Origin: Flammeovirga sp. SJP92
Lineage (GTDB): Bacteria; Bacteroidota; Bacteroidia; Cytophagales; Flammeovirgaceae
Assembly: GCF_001583495.1 (NCBI RefSeq)
Contig: NZ_LQAQ01000093.1
Coordinates: 372,001-436,000, forward strand
DNA: 64,000 nt
Direction: 5' to 3'
The translations under genes and the position numbers were made by a program. This document shows, one piece after another, positions 1 to 7,101 of this stretch. The notes beneath the pieces are model-generated. The model searched no databases. It was not told the origin of the DNA and saw nothing but the letters and a program-made list of their open reading frames with translations. Position 1 is the stretch's first letter, and every line of letters begins with the position of its first letter.

Positions 1-3000
1 AGGCTCACCTGTCCACTCTAAACCAGCAGGAATATCGAAATCGTTATCACCTACTAATACTGTTTCGTTAACAGCCCACTGTGCCCACTTTGTAATCAAG
101 TCTTTTGCTCTTGGATCATTGTTGATATAGTACAATTCGGCAATACGCTCCATTGACCATACTTGCCATCCAAACCATCCACCTGAACCTGGATCGTGAT
201 ACACTGGGTTTTCATCATAAGCCATACCATAGAAAGTAGATTTACCTGCAGGATAAACACTGTAATCACCATTCCAGCTGTTTGTTGCTCCACCTGCAAT
301 ACCACCTTCAGCAGATTGTAACCAAGTATAGAATTCCAACTGACGGTCTAAACTTGTTGTCCAGTCTCTTACACCATTTGAAGATACTGGCTTTAATTCC
401 TCTACTTGAGATAATGCATATGCAGCTACTGGATTTTGGTACCCGAAGTGACAGTGAGATGCACCAATTCTAAATGCCCACGCTGCTGAAGCATCTGTTG
501 CTCCACCCCATGACATATACCATGACATCAGGTAGTGTGCATTATCATAGCTTGTTTGAGAAGTGGCATTTGGATCTTGTGCTCCTAGTGGTTTGAAATA
601 TTTATCAAACATGGCTAATCTCAAGTAATCACCCATTTTAGAAGCTTTATCTAAATCTAAACTACTTAGACTTACACCTTGCTCTTTTGCATATTCGTAA
701 GCCCAGTACATTACTTGTACAGCTCTTGCGTCAGCATCTGGTGCACTTGTGTATCTCCATTGTGTAGAATAAGCTCTGTCTTGAGTAAACAATGGTAAGA
801 AACCATCTGCACTACCCCACTTGAATGCTTCCCATGATGGATGAGGTACTGTTTCGAATACAGATTCTTGCTCACCTCTTTGGAAAGTATTGATATATGA
901 AGGTGCACTTACTCCATCACCACGGTTACCGTAGCCATAGAAGTTGTCATTATCCAATAACCAGTGCATTTGGTAGATATGAGGATTACCATATGCTGCT
1001 TCTAATTCTGCTGAAACATAATCTCCTTTTACTGGATTTGAGAAATCTAAAGGAGCAGGATATAATTCAGGAAGTGGGAATTCAGGAGCATAAGCTGCTG
1101 GGCTTGACGGATCATAAGCACCATTTGTTGGCTGATCTTCTGCTGTTGGGATGATAAACTGTTCTGTTTTTCTCCAAACTTCTTTTAATGGCTCCCAGTC
1201 TCCTGTAATTCTACCGTGCATTGCTTCTAACCACATCCAATAAGAATATAATTCTGAAGTCGATTCGTGACCGTGATCTGGTGCTTCTACAATTAATGAT
1301 TCAACAGAGTGGTGAGGAGAACCTTCAGGACTGAAGTAACCATTGGCAGGGTCTAAGTACATATTTCTCATTTCAACGAAACGCTGAATGTACTCATTGT
1401 CGGTATCTGGAGGAGTAATAATCACATTATCTTCCTCAGCCGTAATTGTAATGATCGCTTGATCTTCTCCACCTTTTGTATCAGTAACTGTCAATGTCAC
1501 ATCATAGCTACCTACAGCTGTATAAGTATGCGTAGCTAAAACACCTTCTCCTACTGTGCCATCACCAAAGTTCCATGCAAAAGATAAAGTATCACCGTCT
1601 GCATCTGTAGAACCTGATGCGTCAAAGCTTACTACAAATGGAATATTTCCAACTGTTGCATCTGCTGAAATACTTGCTACTGGAGGTGTATTTTCATCAG
1701 GAGGATTTGTTCCGCCATCACAAGTTGGAGCTGTTGCTGTTTTGCTGAAATAAACTGTAAAGCCACCTGCTTTCGATACCATTACAAAGTTATCCTGATC
1801 TGAAGTTACCCAATAGTCTCCATCAAAACCTGGAATTCCTGAAGCTGCCACTGTCACTGAAGGCTCAGCTGCGTCAAAAGTATGTGTTACTTTGCTTAAT
1901 AAATCAACATACCAGTTCGGTTGCCCATTGTTAGAATTGAACGAGAATTGGTATAATCCTTTATTTGCAAGATCCCAGTTGATTGTGAAGTCACGCATGT
2001 TGCTTAAATCTGGACCACCGTTACCTAATACAAAGATATTTTGATAAGCAGTATGACCTGTTGATGCAAATGCCTCCGCCTGAGGAGCTCCGAAAGAACA
2101 ATCTGAAGCAACAGCCATTGCTGACATCACTCTCATTGAAGAAGATGCTACAGCACCTGAACAGTTTGGTGCAGTTGCTGAGTTGTTGAAATAGATAGAG
2201 AAAGTACCAGTTTTTGATACTAACACAAAGTTAGCTCCATCTAATGCAACCCAATAATCTCCATCAAAACCTGGGATTCCTGAAGCTGTAATTGTTACAG
2301 CTGGCTGAGCCGCATCAAAAGTATGTGATACCTTGCCTAATAAATCAACATACCAGCTTGGTTGTCCATTGTTTGAATTAAATGAGAATTGATACAATCC
2401 TTTATTTGGCAAGTCCCAGTTGATTGTAAAATCACGCATGTTGCTCAAATCTGGACCACCTTCACCTAATACATGAATGTTCTTGAACGCCGTATGACCT
2501 GTAGTTTCTAAAGCTGATGCTTGAGGTGTACCGAAAGTGCAATCAAAACTTCCGTCAGTCACTTTAATCGTTTCTGAAGTATTGCTTGATTTTCCAGAAG
2601 AGTTAGATACTGTAAGCACTACAATATAATCACCATCAACAGCATACGTTGTAGCCGCTGTTACACCTGTACCTACTTCTCCATTACCAAAGTCCCACGC
2701 ATAAGTTAATGCATCTCCATTTGGATCAATTGAAGCCGACGCATCAAAAGTAACATCAAGAGGCATTACACCACCTGTTGTTGAAGCTGTGAATGATGCT
2801 ACTGGAGGAGCATTAGGATCTAATACTGTAATTGATTCTGTTACAGGAGTTGATACATTTTCTCCATCACTTACTGTTAAAGTAACAGTATACTCACCTG
2901 GTACAGTATAAGTAGCTGATGGTGTTACTAAACTTGATGACGTACCATTTCCAAAATCCCAAGAATAAGTGATTGGATCTTCATTTGGATCTGATGACAT

Positions 3001-4992
3001 TGAAGCATCAAAATTCACTGTCAATGGTGCAACACCTTGGTTAACATCCATCGTAAACTTCGCTACTGGAGTTCCTCCACCGTTTGGCTCTGCACCGAAA
3101 ACTAATACACCGTTATCATAAACTGGTATTCTTGGAGACTCTCCTTCTGTATCTAGTCCAAATGCAGACCAGTCATTTGAAGTATCGTAAGGTACTCCGT
3201 TGGCTACACGGAAGTTCACCTGTACATCACGACGGAATGCAGGGTCACCTATTGGAGCAATTTGCTCACCTGCTAAAGATACTTCTGCATAATAGATATT
3301 ATTTGCCGCATCCCAAGCTGCTACAGTCATAGTGCTGTTTCCTTGTACCGAGTTCAACTCCGGTTGGTAATCTGCAATCGTATAACCTTCTGCTACACCT
3401 TCTGAAATATCAAAGAAGTAACGGAATGAAAGTTTATCAGTCACTCTTGAAGGCCAAGCCGTTCTGTTTTGAACTAAAACTCTCACTGTACTTCCTGAAG
3501 CGTTGTTGCTGTTGAATTTTGAGAATGTTCTGATCTCAGCACGAGTTGGTACTTCTGGTACTGGGAAGTTAGCCAATGGCTCTCCTCCAAATTCCTGGTA
3601 CATTCTTGCCAAAGCACCTGTGAAACATGCGTTGTAATCACAAGCAACCTCATTCGCCACATAATCTGAACGATCATCTTCAAATGCATCATTTGGCTCA
3701 CCTGGACCACCTACCAATGCACCATATAATGTATGACTTGGATCAATTGGATTGTTTAAAAGGTTGTTTGCCCAAGCACCGTGCGCTGATCTGTGATGAG
3801 GGTTATAGGCAGGGTTATTTCCAAAACCTACCATGAAGCTTCTGTTGATTGGGTTATCACCCAGAGCATAGTTGATCTGCTTCACTGCAAAATCATGATA
3901 TTTTGCTTTTTTAGCCGCTGTAGTTGCTACTCTGTCACTGTAGATAAAAGCTACAAGAGCAGTGTTAGAACTATGACGTAATGATCCCCATTGCATCAAG
4001 TGAGCTTGTCCACCTGGACTGTAAGGAATTCTATCTCCTTCAAAGCCATCTGTCCAGTAGTCCAAGTGTCTTTCAGCATCTGCTTTGTACTCTTCTTTAC
4101 CTGTCAATTCAGACATTAAAACATAAATACCATATGCTTTATCATCCCAAGCTAATCCCCACTTGTAAGCTTTCAAAGTAGATTGTCCTTCATTCGATAA
4201 GTTTGTATATTCTGATTCTGCTTTATCTAAATAAGTAGTGTTTCCTGTAGCTTTGTACAACCAAGCTGCACCCCATACTAACTCATCTTGGTATCCACTA
4301 AATGAGCGGTAAAAGCCCGCCGCATCAGTGATTGATTCAGAATACACCCCTCTGTAGTTGTCAGCAAATGCATATAACTCCTCAGCGTGTTGTAATAATA
4401 ATGCACTGTAAGCTGGGTCTGAATCTTTGAAAACAATACTACAAGCCGCCATTGCCGCTGCAGTTTCGCCCGCTAAATCAGAACCAGGATTAGCTGCATC
4501 AATTTTATAGGCAGGTCTTGCCATTGTCATTACTTCAGGTGATCCCCAATAAGCGTGGTCTGGTCCACCTGCACCTACTTGTCCATAAAACTCAGTTGGT
4601 CCAGTATGACATTTTATAAAATAGTCAGTAACGAAACGAAGATTACGTTTCATTATTTCTAATTGTCCACTTTGTCTGTAGGCATCTTCATATTCTACTA
4701 CACCCCATGCAAGGGCTGTAACACTAAATGCCATTGGGAAGCCGAACTTCACGTGATCACCAGCGTCATACCAACCGCCGGTTAAATCTAAGCCAACATC
4801 GGATCCATCATCTAATGCCGAATCATCTCTCCAAGTAACCCTGTTCCAATCAGGTAACTTTCCGGACTGTTGTGCTTCATAAAAAAAGAGAGATTTCTGA
4901 AGGGCTTCTCCATAATTAAATTCCTGTGCCCATAGATTGTTAGTAGCCAGATACAAAAATATTATTGCACCCAACATGAAATTGCGTTTCAT
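1..4992 (-). CDS. Multimodular secreted cellulase GH9-CBM3-PKD-PKD-X-X-PKD-GH48 (3' end outside window)
   Basis: The frame opens at an ATG (4992-4990) and stays open without a stop for 1664 codons to the window edge. Residues 1-23 are a Sec signal peptide ending in LWAQ. About 24-470 is a GH9 endoglucanase: the GGWYDAGDHVKFG motif carries D76 and D79 (catalytic base region), HHRSAHG follows, and E448 in NEVACDYNA is the expected acid. About 478-636 is a family 3 cellulose-binding module (LSFRYFFDIS, NDWSAFGL, PVYDNGVLV), placed as in GH9-CBM3c processive endoglucanases. Then come PKD domains (about 640-726 and 727-810), two near-identical unassigned modules (about 813-948 and 958-1093), a third PKD (about 1095-1188) and a GH48 reducing-end cellobiohydrolase from about 1190. 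In GH48, E1243 in DHGHESTSE is the likely catalytic acid and D1419/D1421 in APDADAR lie where the base-side aspartate sits. Roughly 150 GH48 residues and any C-terminal sorting domain lie beyond position 1. Function: extracellular crystalline-cellulose degradation. Confidence 0.93.
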   Translation of the reverse strand, partial: MKRNFMLGAIIFLYLATNNLWAQEFNYGEALQKSLFFYEAQQSGKLPDWNRVTWRDDSALDDGSDVGLDLTGGWYDAGDHVKFGFPMAFSVTALAWGVVEYEDAYRQSGQLEIMKRNLRFVTDYFIKCHTGPTEFYGQVGAGGPDHAYWGSPEVMTMARPAYKIDAANPGSDLAGETAAAMAACSIVFKDSDPAYSALLLQHAEELYAFADNYRGVYSESITDAAGFYRSFSGYQDELVWGAAWLYKATGNTTYLDKAESEYTNLSNEGQSTLKAYKWGLAWDDKAYGIYVLMSELTGKEEYKADAERHLDYWTDGFEGDRIPYSPGGQAHLMQWGSLRHSSNTALVAFIYSDRVATTAAKKAKYHDFAVKQINYALGDNPINRSFMVGFGNNPAYNPHHRSAHGAWANNLLNNPIDPSHTLYGALVGGPGEPNDAFEDDRSDYVANEVACDYNACFTGALARMYQEFGGEPLANFPVPEVPTRAEIRTFSKFNSNNASGSTVRVLVQNRTAWPSRVTDKLSFRYFFDISEGVAEGYTIADYQPELNSVQGNSTMTVAAWDAANNIYYAEVSLAGEQIAPIGDPAFRRDVQVNFRVANGVPYDTSNDWSAFGLDTEGESPRIPVYDNGVLVFGAEPNGGGTPVAKFTMDVNQGVAPLTVNFDASMSSDPNEDPITYSWDFGNGTSSSLVTPSATYTVPGEYTVTLTVSDGENVSTPVTESITVLDPNAPPVASFTASTTGGVMPLDVTFDASASIDPNGDALTYAWDFGNGEVGTGVTAATTYAVDGDYIVVLTVSNSSGKSSNTSETIKVTDGSFDCTFGTPQASALETTGHTAFKNIHVLGEGGPDLSNMRDFTINWDLPNKGLYQFSFNSNNGQPSWYVDLLGKVSHTFDAAQPAVTITASGIPGFDGDYWVALDGANFVLVSKTGTFSIYFNNSATAPNCSGAVASSSMRVMSAMAVASDCSFGAPQAEAFASTGHTAYQNIFVLGNGGPDLSNMRDFTINWDLANKGLYQFSFNSNNGQPNWYVDLLSKVTHTFDAAEPSVTVAASGIPGFDGDYWVTSDQDNFVMVSKAGGFTVYFSKTATAPTCDGGTNPPDENTPPVASISADATVGNIPFVVSFDASGSTDADGDTLSFAWNFGDGTVGEGVLATHTYTAVGSYDVTLTVTDTKGGEDQAIITITAEEDNVIITPPDTDNEYIQRFVEMRNMYLDPANGYFSPEGSPHHSVESLIVEAPDHGHESTSELYSYWMWLEAMHGRITGDWEPLKEVWRKTEQFIIPTAEDQPTNGAYDPSSPAAYAPEFPLPELYPAPLDFSNPVKGDYVSAELEAAYGNPHIYQMHWLLDNDNFYGYGNRGDGVSAPSYINTFQRGEQESVFETVPHPSWEAFKWGSADGFLPLFTQDRAYSTQWRYTSAPDADARAVQVMYWAYEYAKEQGVSLSSLDLDKASKMGDYLRLAMFDKYFKPLGAQDPNATSQTSYDNAHYLMSWYMSWGGATDASAAWAFRIGASHCHFGYQNPVAAYALSQVEELKPVSSNGVRDWTTSLDRQLEFYTWLQSAEGGIAGGATNSWNGDYSVYPAGKSTFYGMAYDENPVYHDPGSGGWFGWQVWSMERIAELYYINNDPRAKDLITKWAQWAVNETVLVGDNDFDIPAGLEWTGEP
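1714..2106 (-). repeat. Second copy of a duplicated ~130-residue module in the cellulase
   Basis: This encodes residues of about 963-1093 of the cellulase, from the cysteine of SDCSFG to TCDGG. It matches 2155-2553 almost codon for codon, including NMRDFTINWDL, YQFSFNSNNGQP and GIPGFDGDYWV. Each copy starts and ends near a cysteine, which suggests a disulfide closing the fold. The module is beta-rich and aromatic. I cannot assign it to a known CBM family. A carbohydrate-binding role is inferred from its place between catalytic domains. Confidence 0.8.
2155..2553 (-). repeat. First copy of the duplicated ~130-residue module in the cellulase
   Basis: This encodes about residues 814-946, from DCTFGTPQ to APNC. 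It is separated from the second copy by a short Ala/Ser/Met-rich linker. High similarity persists at the DNA level, for example over the segment around 2330-2470 versus 1890-2030. That points to a recent in-gene duplication rather than two old domains of one family. Confidence 0.8.
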
Positions 4993-5958
4993 AATTAGTT
5001 TTAATTAAATGTACTATTTAACGGATGTGAAGAATGTTGCTCAACCTTACGAAAAGGGAGCTTTTGTTGTAATTATTTAATGTGTAGTACCAGAACAATC
5101 GTAAACAGAGCTTTTATCTTTCTCTCTTATGTTATTCTGCCAGGGCCTTTACTACGTAACTATTGTTATGTGTTGTCCATCTGCATTGAACTGCATAAGA
5201 AATAATAAATTCAATTCTCTATTTTCATTTGATCTTAGTACAAAAGACAATGATTTAACCCTCCAGCTAAGAGGTTAAAGTTGTTGTATCATCAAAATTG
5301 GAGCATAAAAATCCACCTCAGCTCAAGACTCATCAAAAATGATATGCTAATCCCAAAATTTGGACACATCAATACATGATCAGACTAGACCGAACATAAA
5401 ATTTCATGTTGTTCTATCTTAATTTTACAACTTCTTAAAAGTGTAGACATTATTCGGCCAGGCATTACTTCTCACAATTTAAAAGAAATACATTTTAAAA
5501 TATTTCTATCAAAAAATAAGACATAACGAAAAGGTCTAAATGTCAATAGGTTTTCATTTAGAAAGGTTGAAGATTGTGTAATTCATTTCAATAGTAATAG
5601 CATATGCAATTACCCTTTTATTAATTGGTTCCAAATCATAAAATGACAATTGTAGTGAGGGTATAGATTCTACAATGCTATTAGTGTTGTTATGTAAAAA
5701 TGGTTTTAAAAAGAAAGATTTGATGTTTTAAATTTATACTAGATTGTTTTTATAGTTAGAAAATAATTATCTCATTTGTCAAAAACTTGACGGTAGCTGG
5801 ATTTAGTCATTTCATTGTCAATTATTAACAATAATACAACTTTTGATAGTAAAAAACTAATTTATCATCAGATAATATACATTTATCGTTAAGACAACAA
5901 AAAAGGGTTATCTCATTCCTTTGATGAAATAACCCTTGATCGGTAAAAAAGAGGTGTT
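4993..5958. other. 966-base AT-rich intergenic region upstream of the cellulase gene
   Basis: No convincing gene or RNA was found on either strand apart from the bshA terminator at its right end. It must hold the promoter and regulatory sites of the giant cellulase gene (minus strand). I found no good match to the Bacteroidota -7 box TAnnTTTG in the first 350 bases upstream of the start. One imperfect palindrome (TAACC...GGTTA, about 5257-5278) could be a regulator site, but this is weak. Confidence 0.5.
5898..5940 (-). terminator. Intrinsic terminator after bshA
   Basis: A 9-bp stem (5903-5911 with 5929-5937, AAGGGTTAT/ATAACCCTT) is followed on the minus strand by a run of T. It lies just downstream of the bshA stop codon. 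Confidence 0.85.
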
Positions 5959-7101
5959 CTAGCCTATTTTCACTTTCGTCTTTTCAATTGCTTTCTTATA
6001 AATCTCTTCATATTGAGGAATGATTTCAGCAATATTATATCGTTGTGCTTGTTTGAGTGCATTCTCTTTAAACGATGGAAGGTTTTTATCGTCAAGGATA
6101 TATAAGGCATTTTTTGCCATGTCCTCCACATCACCAATATCGCTCATCATACCTGTTTTTCCGTGAATATTTACTTCAGGAATACCTCCTGCATTCGTAG
6201 AAATCACTGGAACTTCACAGGCCATTGCTTCTAATGCCGCCAAACCAAAACTTTCTTTTTCAGATGGCATCAAGAATAAATCAGCTACGGAAAGAATTTC
6301 TTCTACTTCTGCTAGTTTTCCCAAGAAACGAACGTCATTGCAAGTACGCAGTTCATAACATTTTTCTTCTAAACTCGCTCTTTCCGGGCCATCACCTACC
6401 ATCAGCAATTTGCAAGGAATCTTTTCTCTTACTCTCTTGAAAACCTCCAAAGCGTCATCTGCTCTTTTCACTTTTCTCATATTGGAAACGTGAATCAACA
6501 GTTTTTCTCCATCTGGACAAATTGCCTTTTTGAAGTGGTCCTTTTTGTGCTTCATGAAGCGTTTCAGGTCTACAAAGTTGGGGATTACTTTGATATCTGT
6601 TGTGAGATCAAAATACTGGTAAGTTTCTTCTTTCAAACTTTCAGAAACAGAGGTTACACAATCTGATTCGTCAATAGAAAAAGCTACTACAGGCCCCAAA
6701 CTGTCATCCTTCCCCACCAAAGTTACATCTGTACCATGAAGTGTGGTCACGATTGGCATATTGATTCCTTTCTTGGCTAAAATCTGCTTTGCTGTATACG
6801 CCGCAGACGCATGAGGAATTGCATAGTGAGCGTGTAAAACATCTAATTGTTCAGACTCTGCCACTTCCACCATCTTACTTGTCAGCGCCAACTCATAAGG
6901 AGGATATTTAAATAATGGGTAGGTTTTGATGTCTACTTTATGGTAATAAATATTTTCATCAAAAAAATCTAACCTCGTTGGCTGATCATAGGTAATGAAA
7001 TGCACCTCATGACCTAAATCTGCGGCTAAACTTTTCCCTAACTCTGTAGCGACTACTCCACTACCTCCGTAGGTAGGATAACATATGATACCAATTTTCA
7101 T
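5959..7101 (-). CDS. bshA: N-acetyl-alpha-D-glucosaminyl L-malate synthase (bacillithiol biosynthesis)
   Basis: This is a 380-residue GT4-family, GT-B fold glycosyltransferase. It transfers GlcNAc from UDP-GlcNAc to L-malate, the first step of bacillithiol synthesis in the cytoplasm. The N-terminus MKIGIICYPTYGGSGVVATE carries the glycine-rich loop typical of BshA. HAHYAIPHA and TTLHGTDVT are in the acceptor-side domain. The donor-binding EX7E motif is in SEKESFGLAALEAMA at about residues 282-296. Length is normal for the family. The upstream ytxJ gene (22 bases away, same strand) is another bacillithiol-associated gene, which supports the assignment over other GT4 enzymes. The two are probably one transcript ending at the hairpin at 5898-5940. 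Confidence 0.92.
   Translation of the reverse strand: MKIGIICYPTYGGSGVVATELGKSLAADLGHEVHFITYDQPTRLDFFDENIYYHKVDIKTYPLFKYPPYELALTSKMVEVAESEQLDVLHAHYAIPHASAAYTAKQILAKKGINMPIVTTLHGTDVTLVGKDDSLGPVVAFSIDESDCVTSVSESLKEETYQYFDLTTDIKVIPNFVDLKRFMKHKKDHFKKAICPDGEKLLIHVSNMRKVKRADDALEVFKRVREKIPCKLLMVGDGPERASLEEKCYELRTCNDVRFLGKLAEVEEILSVADLFLMPSEKESFGLAALEAMACEVPVISTNAGGIPEVNIHGKTGMMSDIGDVEDMAKNALYILDDKNLPSFKENALKQAQRYNIAEIIPQYEEIYKKAIEKTKVKIG

What the first reader, a model, noticed from the sequence alone, without database searches (positions are those of the whole stretch)
1..4992. GH9 and GH48 cellulases fused in one Bacteroidota polypeptide
The open frame joins a GH9-CBM3 endoglucanase to a GH48 cellobiohydrolase with all expected catalytic residues (D76, D79, E448; E1243, D1419/D1421). 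The same idea is known in Caldicellulosiruptor CelA (GH9-CBM3-CBM3-CBM3-GH48), a Firmicute. GH48 is mainly a Firmicutes/Actinobacteria family, and to my knowledge is rare in Bacteroidota. Here the linkers are PKD domains and an unknown duplicated module, so the fusion may have arisen independently or been rebuilt after transfer. It would give endo and processive exo activity in one secreted enzyme.
Basis: partly seen in the sequence, partly recalled or inferred. Interest (0 to 1): 0.88.

Follow-up and report, generated by a model that had tools for sequence, protein, structure and literature searches.

The report
Two-headed cellulase of marine Bacteroidota
A marine Flammeovirga-type bacterium carries one very long secreted enzyme that joins two different cellulose-cutting machines; many related marine bacteria carry it too, and it arose separately from the famous heat-loving CelA enzyme.

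Summary
The fusion is real and complete. The frame runs 804 bases past the left window edge and encodes 1932 aa: signal peptide, GH9, CBM3c, PKD x2, a module twice, PKD, GH48, T9SS sorting domain. The "unknown duplicated module" is the UKD/CBM113 cellulose- and alginate-binding domain (PDB 9KVN, E 1.8e-42). The host genus is Flammeovirga; 8 of 9 genus genomes have the gene. It is not unique: of 57 Bacteroidota loci among the best 80 (of 418) GH48 loci of a scan, 42 encode one GH9+GH48 protein, 28 in Aquimarina. One clade with Caldicellulosiruptor CelA is rejected for GH48 (p-AU 3.4e-50), so the fusion is convergent. Later a Flavivirga lost GH9 by in-frame deletion, and the GH9-CBM3c head was swapped: five chosen pairs have 90-93% identical GH48 but 52-55% identical GH9. 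One residue call was wrong: the invariant GH48 glutamates are E1236 and E1247, not E1243. Activity is inferred, not shown. It is a new variant of a known kind (CelA-like cellulase); I found no paper describing it in Bacteroidota.

The parts
4927..4992 (-). N-terminal signal peptide (residues 1-22), no lipobox
   Evidence: read by eye from the sequence before the GH9 start; no predictor run
3610..4914 (-). GH9 catalytic domain (residues 27-461), D76, D79, E448
   Evidence: Pfam PF00759 E 2.7e-157; with CBM3c matches T. fusca E4 over residues 24-636, E 8.4e-226; residues
3085..3558 (-). CBM3c module next to GH9 (residues 479-636)
   Evidence: Pfam PF00942 E 5.1e-10; PDB 2xfg_B E 8.2e-25
2860..3072 (-). 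PKD domain 1 (residues 641-711)
   Evidence: Pfam PF18911, 3 stretches; position less the 4 extra residues of that frame
2581..2814 (-). PKD domain 2 (residues 727-804)
   Evidence: Pfam PF18911, 3 stretches; position less the 4 extra residues of that frame
2161..2544 (-). UKD/CBM113 copy a (residues 817-944)
   Evidence: PDB 9KVN E 1.8e-42; cellulose-binding aromatics Y/W/Y
1720..2103 (-). UKD/CBM113 copy b (residues 964-1091)
   Evidence: 75% identical to copy a, phmmer E 6.7e-70; Y/W/Y
1441..1692 (-). PKD domain 3 (residues 1101-1184)
   Evidence: Pfam PF18911 best stretch
1..1392 (-). GH48 catalytic domain, first 464 residues (1201-1664); the rest (to 1826) and the T9SS sorting domain (1858-1930) lie left of the window
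   Evidence: Pfam PF02011 E 4.3e-282 over 1201-1826, PF18962 E 1.5e-9, TIGR04183; place C93:371515-373392

Best explanation
A complete, T9SS-exported, bifunctional cellulase of Flammeovirga: an N-terminal GH9-CBM3c (processive-endoglucanase type) and a C-terminal GH48 (processive cellobiohydrolase type) on one chain, held together by PKD spacers and two CBM113 modules that bind insoluble cellulose, and attached to the cell surface or released by the T9SS. GH9 opens chains, GH48 runs along them to cellobiose, and the CBM113 pair keeps both on the fibre. It works like Caldicellulosiruptor CelA but is a separate invention within Bacteroidota, most likely from separate T9SS GH9 and GH48 genes, and is shared by several marine genera. 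Shown: architecture, conservation, catalytic residues, separate origin of the GH48 half from CelA's, later loss and cassette exchange. Inferred: activities, synergy, surface attachment, origin from a neighbouring gene pair, spread between genera.
For: Domains; CBM113 identity; GH9-CBM3c like T. fusca E4; GH48 like solved GH48 chains: best 4fus_A (labelled by its depositors 'RTX toxins and related Ca2+-binding protein'), then 4l0g, 4el8, 6d5d; invariant catalytic residues; same frame in 8 of 9 genus genomes and in 42 of 57 Bacteroidota loci of a capped list; fused and split Bacteroidota GH48s one clade at 100/98; one clade with CelA rejected, p-AU 3.4e-50; neighbouring unfused GH9 and GH48 genes in a Fulvivirga MAG, a Pseudarcicella MAG, Saccharicrinis, Labilibaculum and Geofilum; SprA and 132 sorting-domain matches, 124 over the cut-off, in the own genome; F. 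pacifica WPAGA1, which has the gene, grew on cellulose (as CMC) and its supernatant had 3.56 U/ml on it (PMC5385347, passages); GH9/GH48 synergy in CelA (PMC3865294, passages).
Against: No activity was or could be measured. In F. pacifica growth on CMC was weak (OD 0.283), CMC is not crystalline, and that paper assigns cellulose to GH9 only. The Fulvivirga paper lists GH48 under chitin (PMC10113389, passages). In CelA a mixture of two overlapping truncated forms reached about the Avicel hydrolysis of the whole, so covalent joining may add little. One of 9 genus genomes (G003) lacks the gene; Flavivirga jejuensis lost the GH9 part of it. The sister of the fused clade has only 85/88 support, the next branch 31/35, and inner branches are weak, so a single fusion event is not proved.
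Confidence: 0.82

Rival explanations
1. The Bacteroidota protein descends from a transferred Caldicellulosiruptor-type CelA whose CBM3b linkers were replaced by PKD and UKD.
For: Same order of catalytic domains and same GH9-CBM3c start; CelA-type GH9-CBM3x3-GH48 genes were found in 4 of the 398 Bacillota genomes searched, 14 of which have GH48.
Against: Window GH48 is 58.6% identical to CelA's against 60-69% to unfused Bacteroidota GH48s; one clade with CelA rejected, p-AU 3.4e-50; CelA's GH9 groups with an Anaerobacterium GH9, away from the Bacteroidota GH9s.
Confidence: 0.03
2. Several separate fusions inside Bacteroidota rather than one ancestral fusion with later splits.
For: Reichenbachiella has another domain order (GH9-CBM3-PKDx3-UKD-GH48-PKD-UKD-CTD), which equals the neighbouring gene pair of the Fulvivirga MAG joined end to end; weak inner branches; two types of GH9 half.
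Against: Fused and split GH48s form one 100/98 clade; Flavivirga jejuensis carries a clear remnant of a fused ancestor and Tenacibaculum M341 a short suggestive one (by eye). In the other split loci (Aquimarina megaterium, Aq78, isolate 2-674-G) I saw no remnant. The test of split plus unfused genes as one clade did not finish.
Confidence: 0.3
3. The GH48 half acts on chitin or another glycan, so the protein is not an endo/exo cellulase pair.
For: GH48 is listed under chitin in the Fulvivirga paper (PMC10113389, passages) and among chitinolytic families in PMC10535946 (passage).
Against: It is joined to GH9-CBM3c and CBM113; CelA's GH48, 58.6% identical, is a cellobiohydrolase; four checked flavobacterial loci have a GH5-UKD gene close by.
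Confidence: 0.07
4. Assembly join or frameshift artefact.
For: None found.
Against: Open through in many independent assemblies and in three chromosomal contexts within the genus.
Confidence: 0.01

Closest known systems
CelA (CbCel9A/Cel48A) of Caldicellulosiruptor bescii
   Same: GH9-CBM3c at the N-terminus, GH48 at the C-terminus, one secreted chain; catalytic residues conserved
   Different: CelA links by CBM3b modules, this by PKD and CBM113; T9SS sorting domain here; marine Gram-negative host; GH48s not one clade
CelAly of Aquimarina sp. (GH5 + PL31 with two Big domains and UKD, T9SS)
   Same: CBM113/UKD module and T9SS sorting domain in a two-catalyst marine Bacteroidota enzyme
   Different: Other catalytic domains (GH5 cellulase + alginate lyase); here two UKDs and two cellulase-family domains; the alginate-binding Lys100 of UKD is Leu/Ser in the window copies
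Multi-modular T9SS cellulases of Ca. Paraporphyromonas polyenzymogenes (GH5-GH5 and others)
   Same: Bacteroidota T9SS cellulases with more than one catalytic domain (PMC5831590, passages)
Chloroflexi MAG protein L084 (GH9-CBM3c-GH48, 1680 aa)
   Same: Same two catalytic domains in the same order
   Different: Its GH48 falls, weakly placed, outside the Bacteroidota group and its GH9 next to the Fulvivirga MAG: apparently another fusion; single MAG

Membership tests
GH48 (PF02011) | Full-length match to the family profile | tested here: met
   E 4.3e-282, profile 1-619 of 619
GH48 (PF02011) | Catalytic Glu pair of Cel48F (E44, E55) and the Asp pair | tested here: met
   E1236, E1247 invariant 95 of 95; D1419, D1421 96 of 96. 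E44/E55 from PMC10317168 (passages), placed by the offset to 1f9o, whose own alignment was not printed
GH9 (PF00759) with CBM3c | Full-length GH9 plus CBM3c in the E4 arrangement, Asp/Asp/Glu residues | tested here: met
   (residue roles recalled)
CelA-like GH9...GH48 bifunctional cellulases | GH9-CBM3c N-terminal and GH48 C-terminal in one secreted chain | tested here: met
CelA-like GH9...GH48 bifunctional cellulases | Common descent with CelA | tested here: not met
   AU test of the GH48 half, p 3.4e-50 against one clade; so it works like CelA but is not filed as a CelA descendant
CelA-like GH9...GH48 bifunctional cellulases | Endo plus exo activity with synergy on crystalline cellulose | not testable with these tools
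   needs purified protein
CBM113 (UKD) | Homology over the whole domain and the cellulose-binding aromatic patch (Tyr50, Tyr63, Tyr64) | tested here: met
   E 1.8e-42 over 126 of 126 residues of 9KVN; Y, W, Y in both copies; residues from PMC13235733 section 18
CBM113 (UKD) | Alginate-binding residues Arg36, Lys100, Lys110 | tested here: inconclusive
   R36 and K110 kept, position 100 is L (copy a) or S (copy b)
T9SS cargo | Signal peptide plus type A C-terminal sorting domain, host with T9SS | tested here: met
   TIGR04183 34.6 bits, cut-off 23; SprA in the genome; signal peptide by eye only

The most novel reading that the evidence does not exclude
Marine Bacteroidota independently evolved a CelA-type two-headed cellulase, and it behaves as an exchangeable-cassette chassis: the GH48-T9SS half is kept while the whole GH9-CBM3c head is repeatedly replaced by recombination in the PKD/UKD linker, with neighbouring stand-alone GH9 genes as one source. 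The same linker recombination could have made the first fusion. It would also contradict, for these marine genera, the printed view that Bacteroidetes genomes lack exocellulases.
Probability: 0.7. Interest if true: 0.68.

Novelty: new variant of a known kind. Interest (0 to 1): 0.55.

Why it matters
[quoted passage not shown] GH48 has been listed in three Fulvivirga genomes, under chitin (PMC10113389). Here a GH48, joined to GH9, recurs in marine Bacteroidota. A convergent CelA with other linkers lets one ask what joining GH9 to GH48 itself contributes, and the natural swaps, splits and deletions are ready-made variants for that test.

Tried and rejected
Considered and rejected: assembly or frameshift artefact; descent from Caldicellulosiruptor CelA; 'unknown' module; E1243 as GH48 acid. 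L014/G616 (22 bits, under the cut-off) was not taken as a GH48. No LPMO10 match in the own genome.

Led nowhere or limited: the UKD tree is poorly resolved; copies a and b of one protein often group within a lineage, so it does not date the junction. In one search the test 'Bacteroidota fused + CelA' was void, because CelA's GH48 row is identical to that of another gene of the same genome (L142) and was left free; the test of all fusions there (p-AU 3.8e-49) left the same row free. Repeated without L142: fused + CelA p-AU 3.4e-50, all fusions p-AU 2.0e-5. In one search the test of split plus unfused Bacteroidota GH48s as one clade did not finish and was not repeated. One search gave 7 changes of GH9 type without a shuffled control. 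GH9 types I and II were named after seeing the GH9 tree; the clades tested were chosen from GH48 likeness. In the all-row quick GH48 tree two Agarivorans (Pseudomonadota) domains also fall among the Bacteroidota, with support 14; they are not in the careful tree.

Rows dropped: from the GH9 tree L015, L017, L018, L019, L024, L025 (same contigs as L028, L027, L076, L026, L042, L047); from the GH48 tree pieces of 500 residues or less, so both pieces of L073 (frame broken in two). The reduced trees hold 45 and 40 of 96 GH48 rows and 28 of 75 GH9 rows. The scan used two peptide patterns and kept 80 of 418 relatives, so its counts are of that list.

Literature: searches bearing on the protein were 20 listed of 181; 20 of 96; 20 of 429; 20 of 329; 7 of 7; 25 of 117; 10 of 131; one search was for Cel48F residues. 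Among the listed papers I saw none that describes a GH9+GH48 protein in Bacteroidota; unlisted ones were not seen. Passages were read in PMC10113389, PMC6247017, PMC13235733 (also its section 18), PMC5707792 (terms not found), PMC5385347, PMC10317168, PMC5831590, PMC10535946, PMC3865294. The UKD survey of PMC13235733 (222 of 432 CAZymes are GH) may contain such proteins without naming them. Only open-licence PMC was searched; CAZy was not.

Full report
OBSERVATION. The window is G000:C93:372001-436000 of an 8.49 Mb genome. The open frame at 4992..1 (-) continues left of the window and ends after residue 1932. By eye its neighbours are a cobalamin gene cluster on the 3' side and a bacillithiol-type glycosyltransferase on the other. 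Pfam gives GH9 27-461, CBM3 494-571, three PKD stretches, GH48 1201-1826 and a Por secretion tail 1858-1930; NCBIfam gives the T9SS type A sorting domain over its cut-off.

THE DUPLICATED MODULE. Residues 817-944 match PDB 9KVN, the UKD domain of Aquimarina CelAly, over all 126 residues (E 1.8e-42); residues 964-1091 are a second copy, 75% identical. PMC13235733 (passages and section 18) shows that UKD binds insoluble cellulose and alginate and names it CBM113. The cellulose-binding Tyr50, Tyr63, Tyr64 are Tyr, Trp, Tyr in both window copies; of the alginate residues Arg36 and Lys110 are kept and Lys100 is lost. I predict cellulose binding with weak alginate binding.

CATALYTIC RESIDUES. D76, D79 and E448 are present in 74 of 75 GH9 rows each, the odd row being a gap. 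D1419 and D1421 are in 96 of 96 GH48 rows; E1236 and E1247 in 95 of 95 rows with a letter. By offset these two meet E44 and E55 of Cel48F, the catalytic pair named in PMC10317168 (passages).

DISTRIBUTION. GH48 is in 8 of 18 genomes of the family, all 8 among the 9 of the window's genus; in 10 of 390 of the order; over the cut-off in 3 of 395 of the phylum and 2 of 395 of the class, own genome included. A named scan points to Flammeovirga: contigs of F. aprica, F. pacifica WPAGA1, OC4 and EKP202 have the sizes of those of four genus genomes. Of the 80 loci kept (of 418), 57 are Bacteroidota; 42 of these encode GH9 and GH48 in one frame (Aquimarina 28, Tenacibaculum 5, Flammeovirga 4, Flavivirga 1, Reichenbachiella 1, no genus named 3), 41 of them with at least one UKD; 15 do not, one of them (L041) cut by a contig end. 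One Chloroflexota MAG is fused as well.

ORIGIN. In a careful tree of 45 of the 96 GH48 domains, 22 fused or split Bacteroidota sequences form one clade (100/98). With the other sampled Bacteroidota and one Verrucomicrobia MAG they are split from Bacillota, Chloroflexota, Actinomycetota, Acidobacteriota and Pseudomonadota at 100/100. Holding the fused and split ones together with CelA costs 151 log-likelihood units (p-AU 3.4e-50). The nearest sequences outside the clade are unfused GH48 genes of a Cyclobacteriaceae assembly (85/88) and of a Fulvivirga MAG and Pseudarcicella (31/35). In that Fulvivirga MAG, Pseudarcicella, Saccharicrinis, Labilibaculum and Geofilum a GH9-CBM3 gene and a GH48 gene lie side by side (Geofilum in the other order), with termini that look by eye like separate signal peptides and sorting tails. 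Joining of two neighbouring T9SS cellulase genes is therefore the likely path; this is inference.

AFTERLIFE OF THE FUSION. (i) Loss: Flavivirga jejuensis keeps the signal peptide and the first ~20 residues of GH9, then runs straight into UKD; against F. aquatica this is an in-frame deletion of GH9-CBM3-PKD. (ii) Split: Tenacibaculum M341 has two genes divided between the two UKDs, the second seeming by eye to keep a few residues of the first UKD behind its signal peptide. Aquimarina megaterium, Aq78 and isolate 2-674-G are also divided there, without a remnant that I could see; whether these are splits or never fused is open. (iii) Exchange: GH9 heads fall into two types. Five chosen pairs of opposite type have 90-93% identical GH48 but 52-55% identical GH9; in the four pairs profiled identity rises near the CBM3c/PKD border; the GH9 tree refuses to unite three groups that GH48 likeness unites (p-AU 5e-48, 3e-10, 2e-5); the fewest changes of type on a GH48 tree of 50 such loci are 7. 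In isolate 637-3Z a stand-alone type II GH9 gene precedes a fused type I gene and the two share 1203 bp of PKD-UKD linker at 99.7%, as expected of a recent recombination; a misassembly is not excluded. (iv) Movement: in 8 Flammeovirga genomes the gene sits in three contexts that share no similar flank within 6 kb.

HOW IT WORKS. In CelA (PMC3865294, passages) the GH48 half alone is a weak cellobiohydrolase, removal of GH48 halves and removal of GH9 dramatically lowers activity on Avicel, and the halves are synergistic, although a mix of overlapping truncated forms did about as well as the whole. The same pair with the same residues, joined by cellulose-binding linkers and routed through the T9SS (SprA; 132 sorting-domain matches, 124 over the cut-off), should act alike at or near the cell surface. 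The gene is the only GH48 of this genome and holds the only close GH9 listed; a distant one (25% identity) lies on C20. No LPMO10 was found. In four flavobacterial loci checked a T9SS GH5-UKD gene lies downstream; in the window the gene stands alone.

NOVELTY. The kind (CelA-like) is known and the module is published. Seven searches of open-licence PMC (top of the lists only, save) showed me no paper that describes the protein in Bacteroidota; GH48 itself has been listed in Fulvivirga (PMC10113389). CAZy and subscription papers were not seen.

Noticed in passing
L164:1601-8599 (-), G000:C62 (own genome, outside the window): 2332-aa T9SS protein with two CxxCH haem motifs (RoxA/MauG-like cytochrome c region), CBM3, PKD and a UKD/CBM113: a possible cellulose-bound redox protein in a genome without an LPMO10 match.
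   Followed up: partly
L163:2085-5234 (-), G000:C63 (own genome): T9SS GH8-Big_2-CBM6-UKD protein, the third UKD-bearing protein of this genome.
   Followed up: partly
L057:2-8711: Adjacent stand-alone GH9 gene and fused GH9-GH48 gene share 1203 bp at 99.7% identity right after divergent GH9-CBM3c heads.
   Followed up: partly
L084:3348-8387: Chloroflexi MAG with its own GH9-CBM3c-GH48 protein whose two halves have different nearest relatives.
   Followed up: partly
L082:4203-9395: Saccharicrinis aurantiacus protein with two GH48 domains in one frame.
   Followed up: no
L146 (unnamed Bacillota genome): GH9-CBM3-CBM3-GH48 protein cut by the contig end, GH48 67% identical to CelA.
   Followed up: no
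window 4993-5958: AT-rich (26-31% GC) non-coding stretch of about 960 bp upstream of the gene, with one terminator-like hairpin beyond the end of the neighbouring gene 5959-7101.
   Followed up: no
L014 (G616:C1:897924-898181): Weak partial GH48-profile match (22 bits, below the cut-off) inside a 2107-aa frame in another class of the phylum.
   Followed up: no
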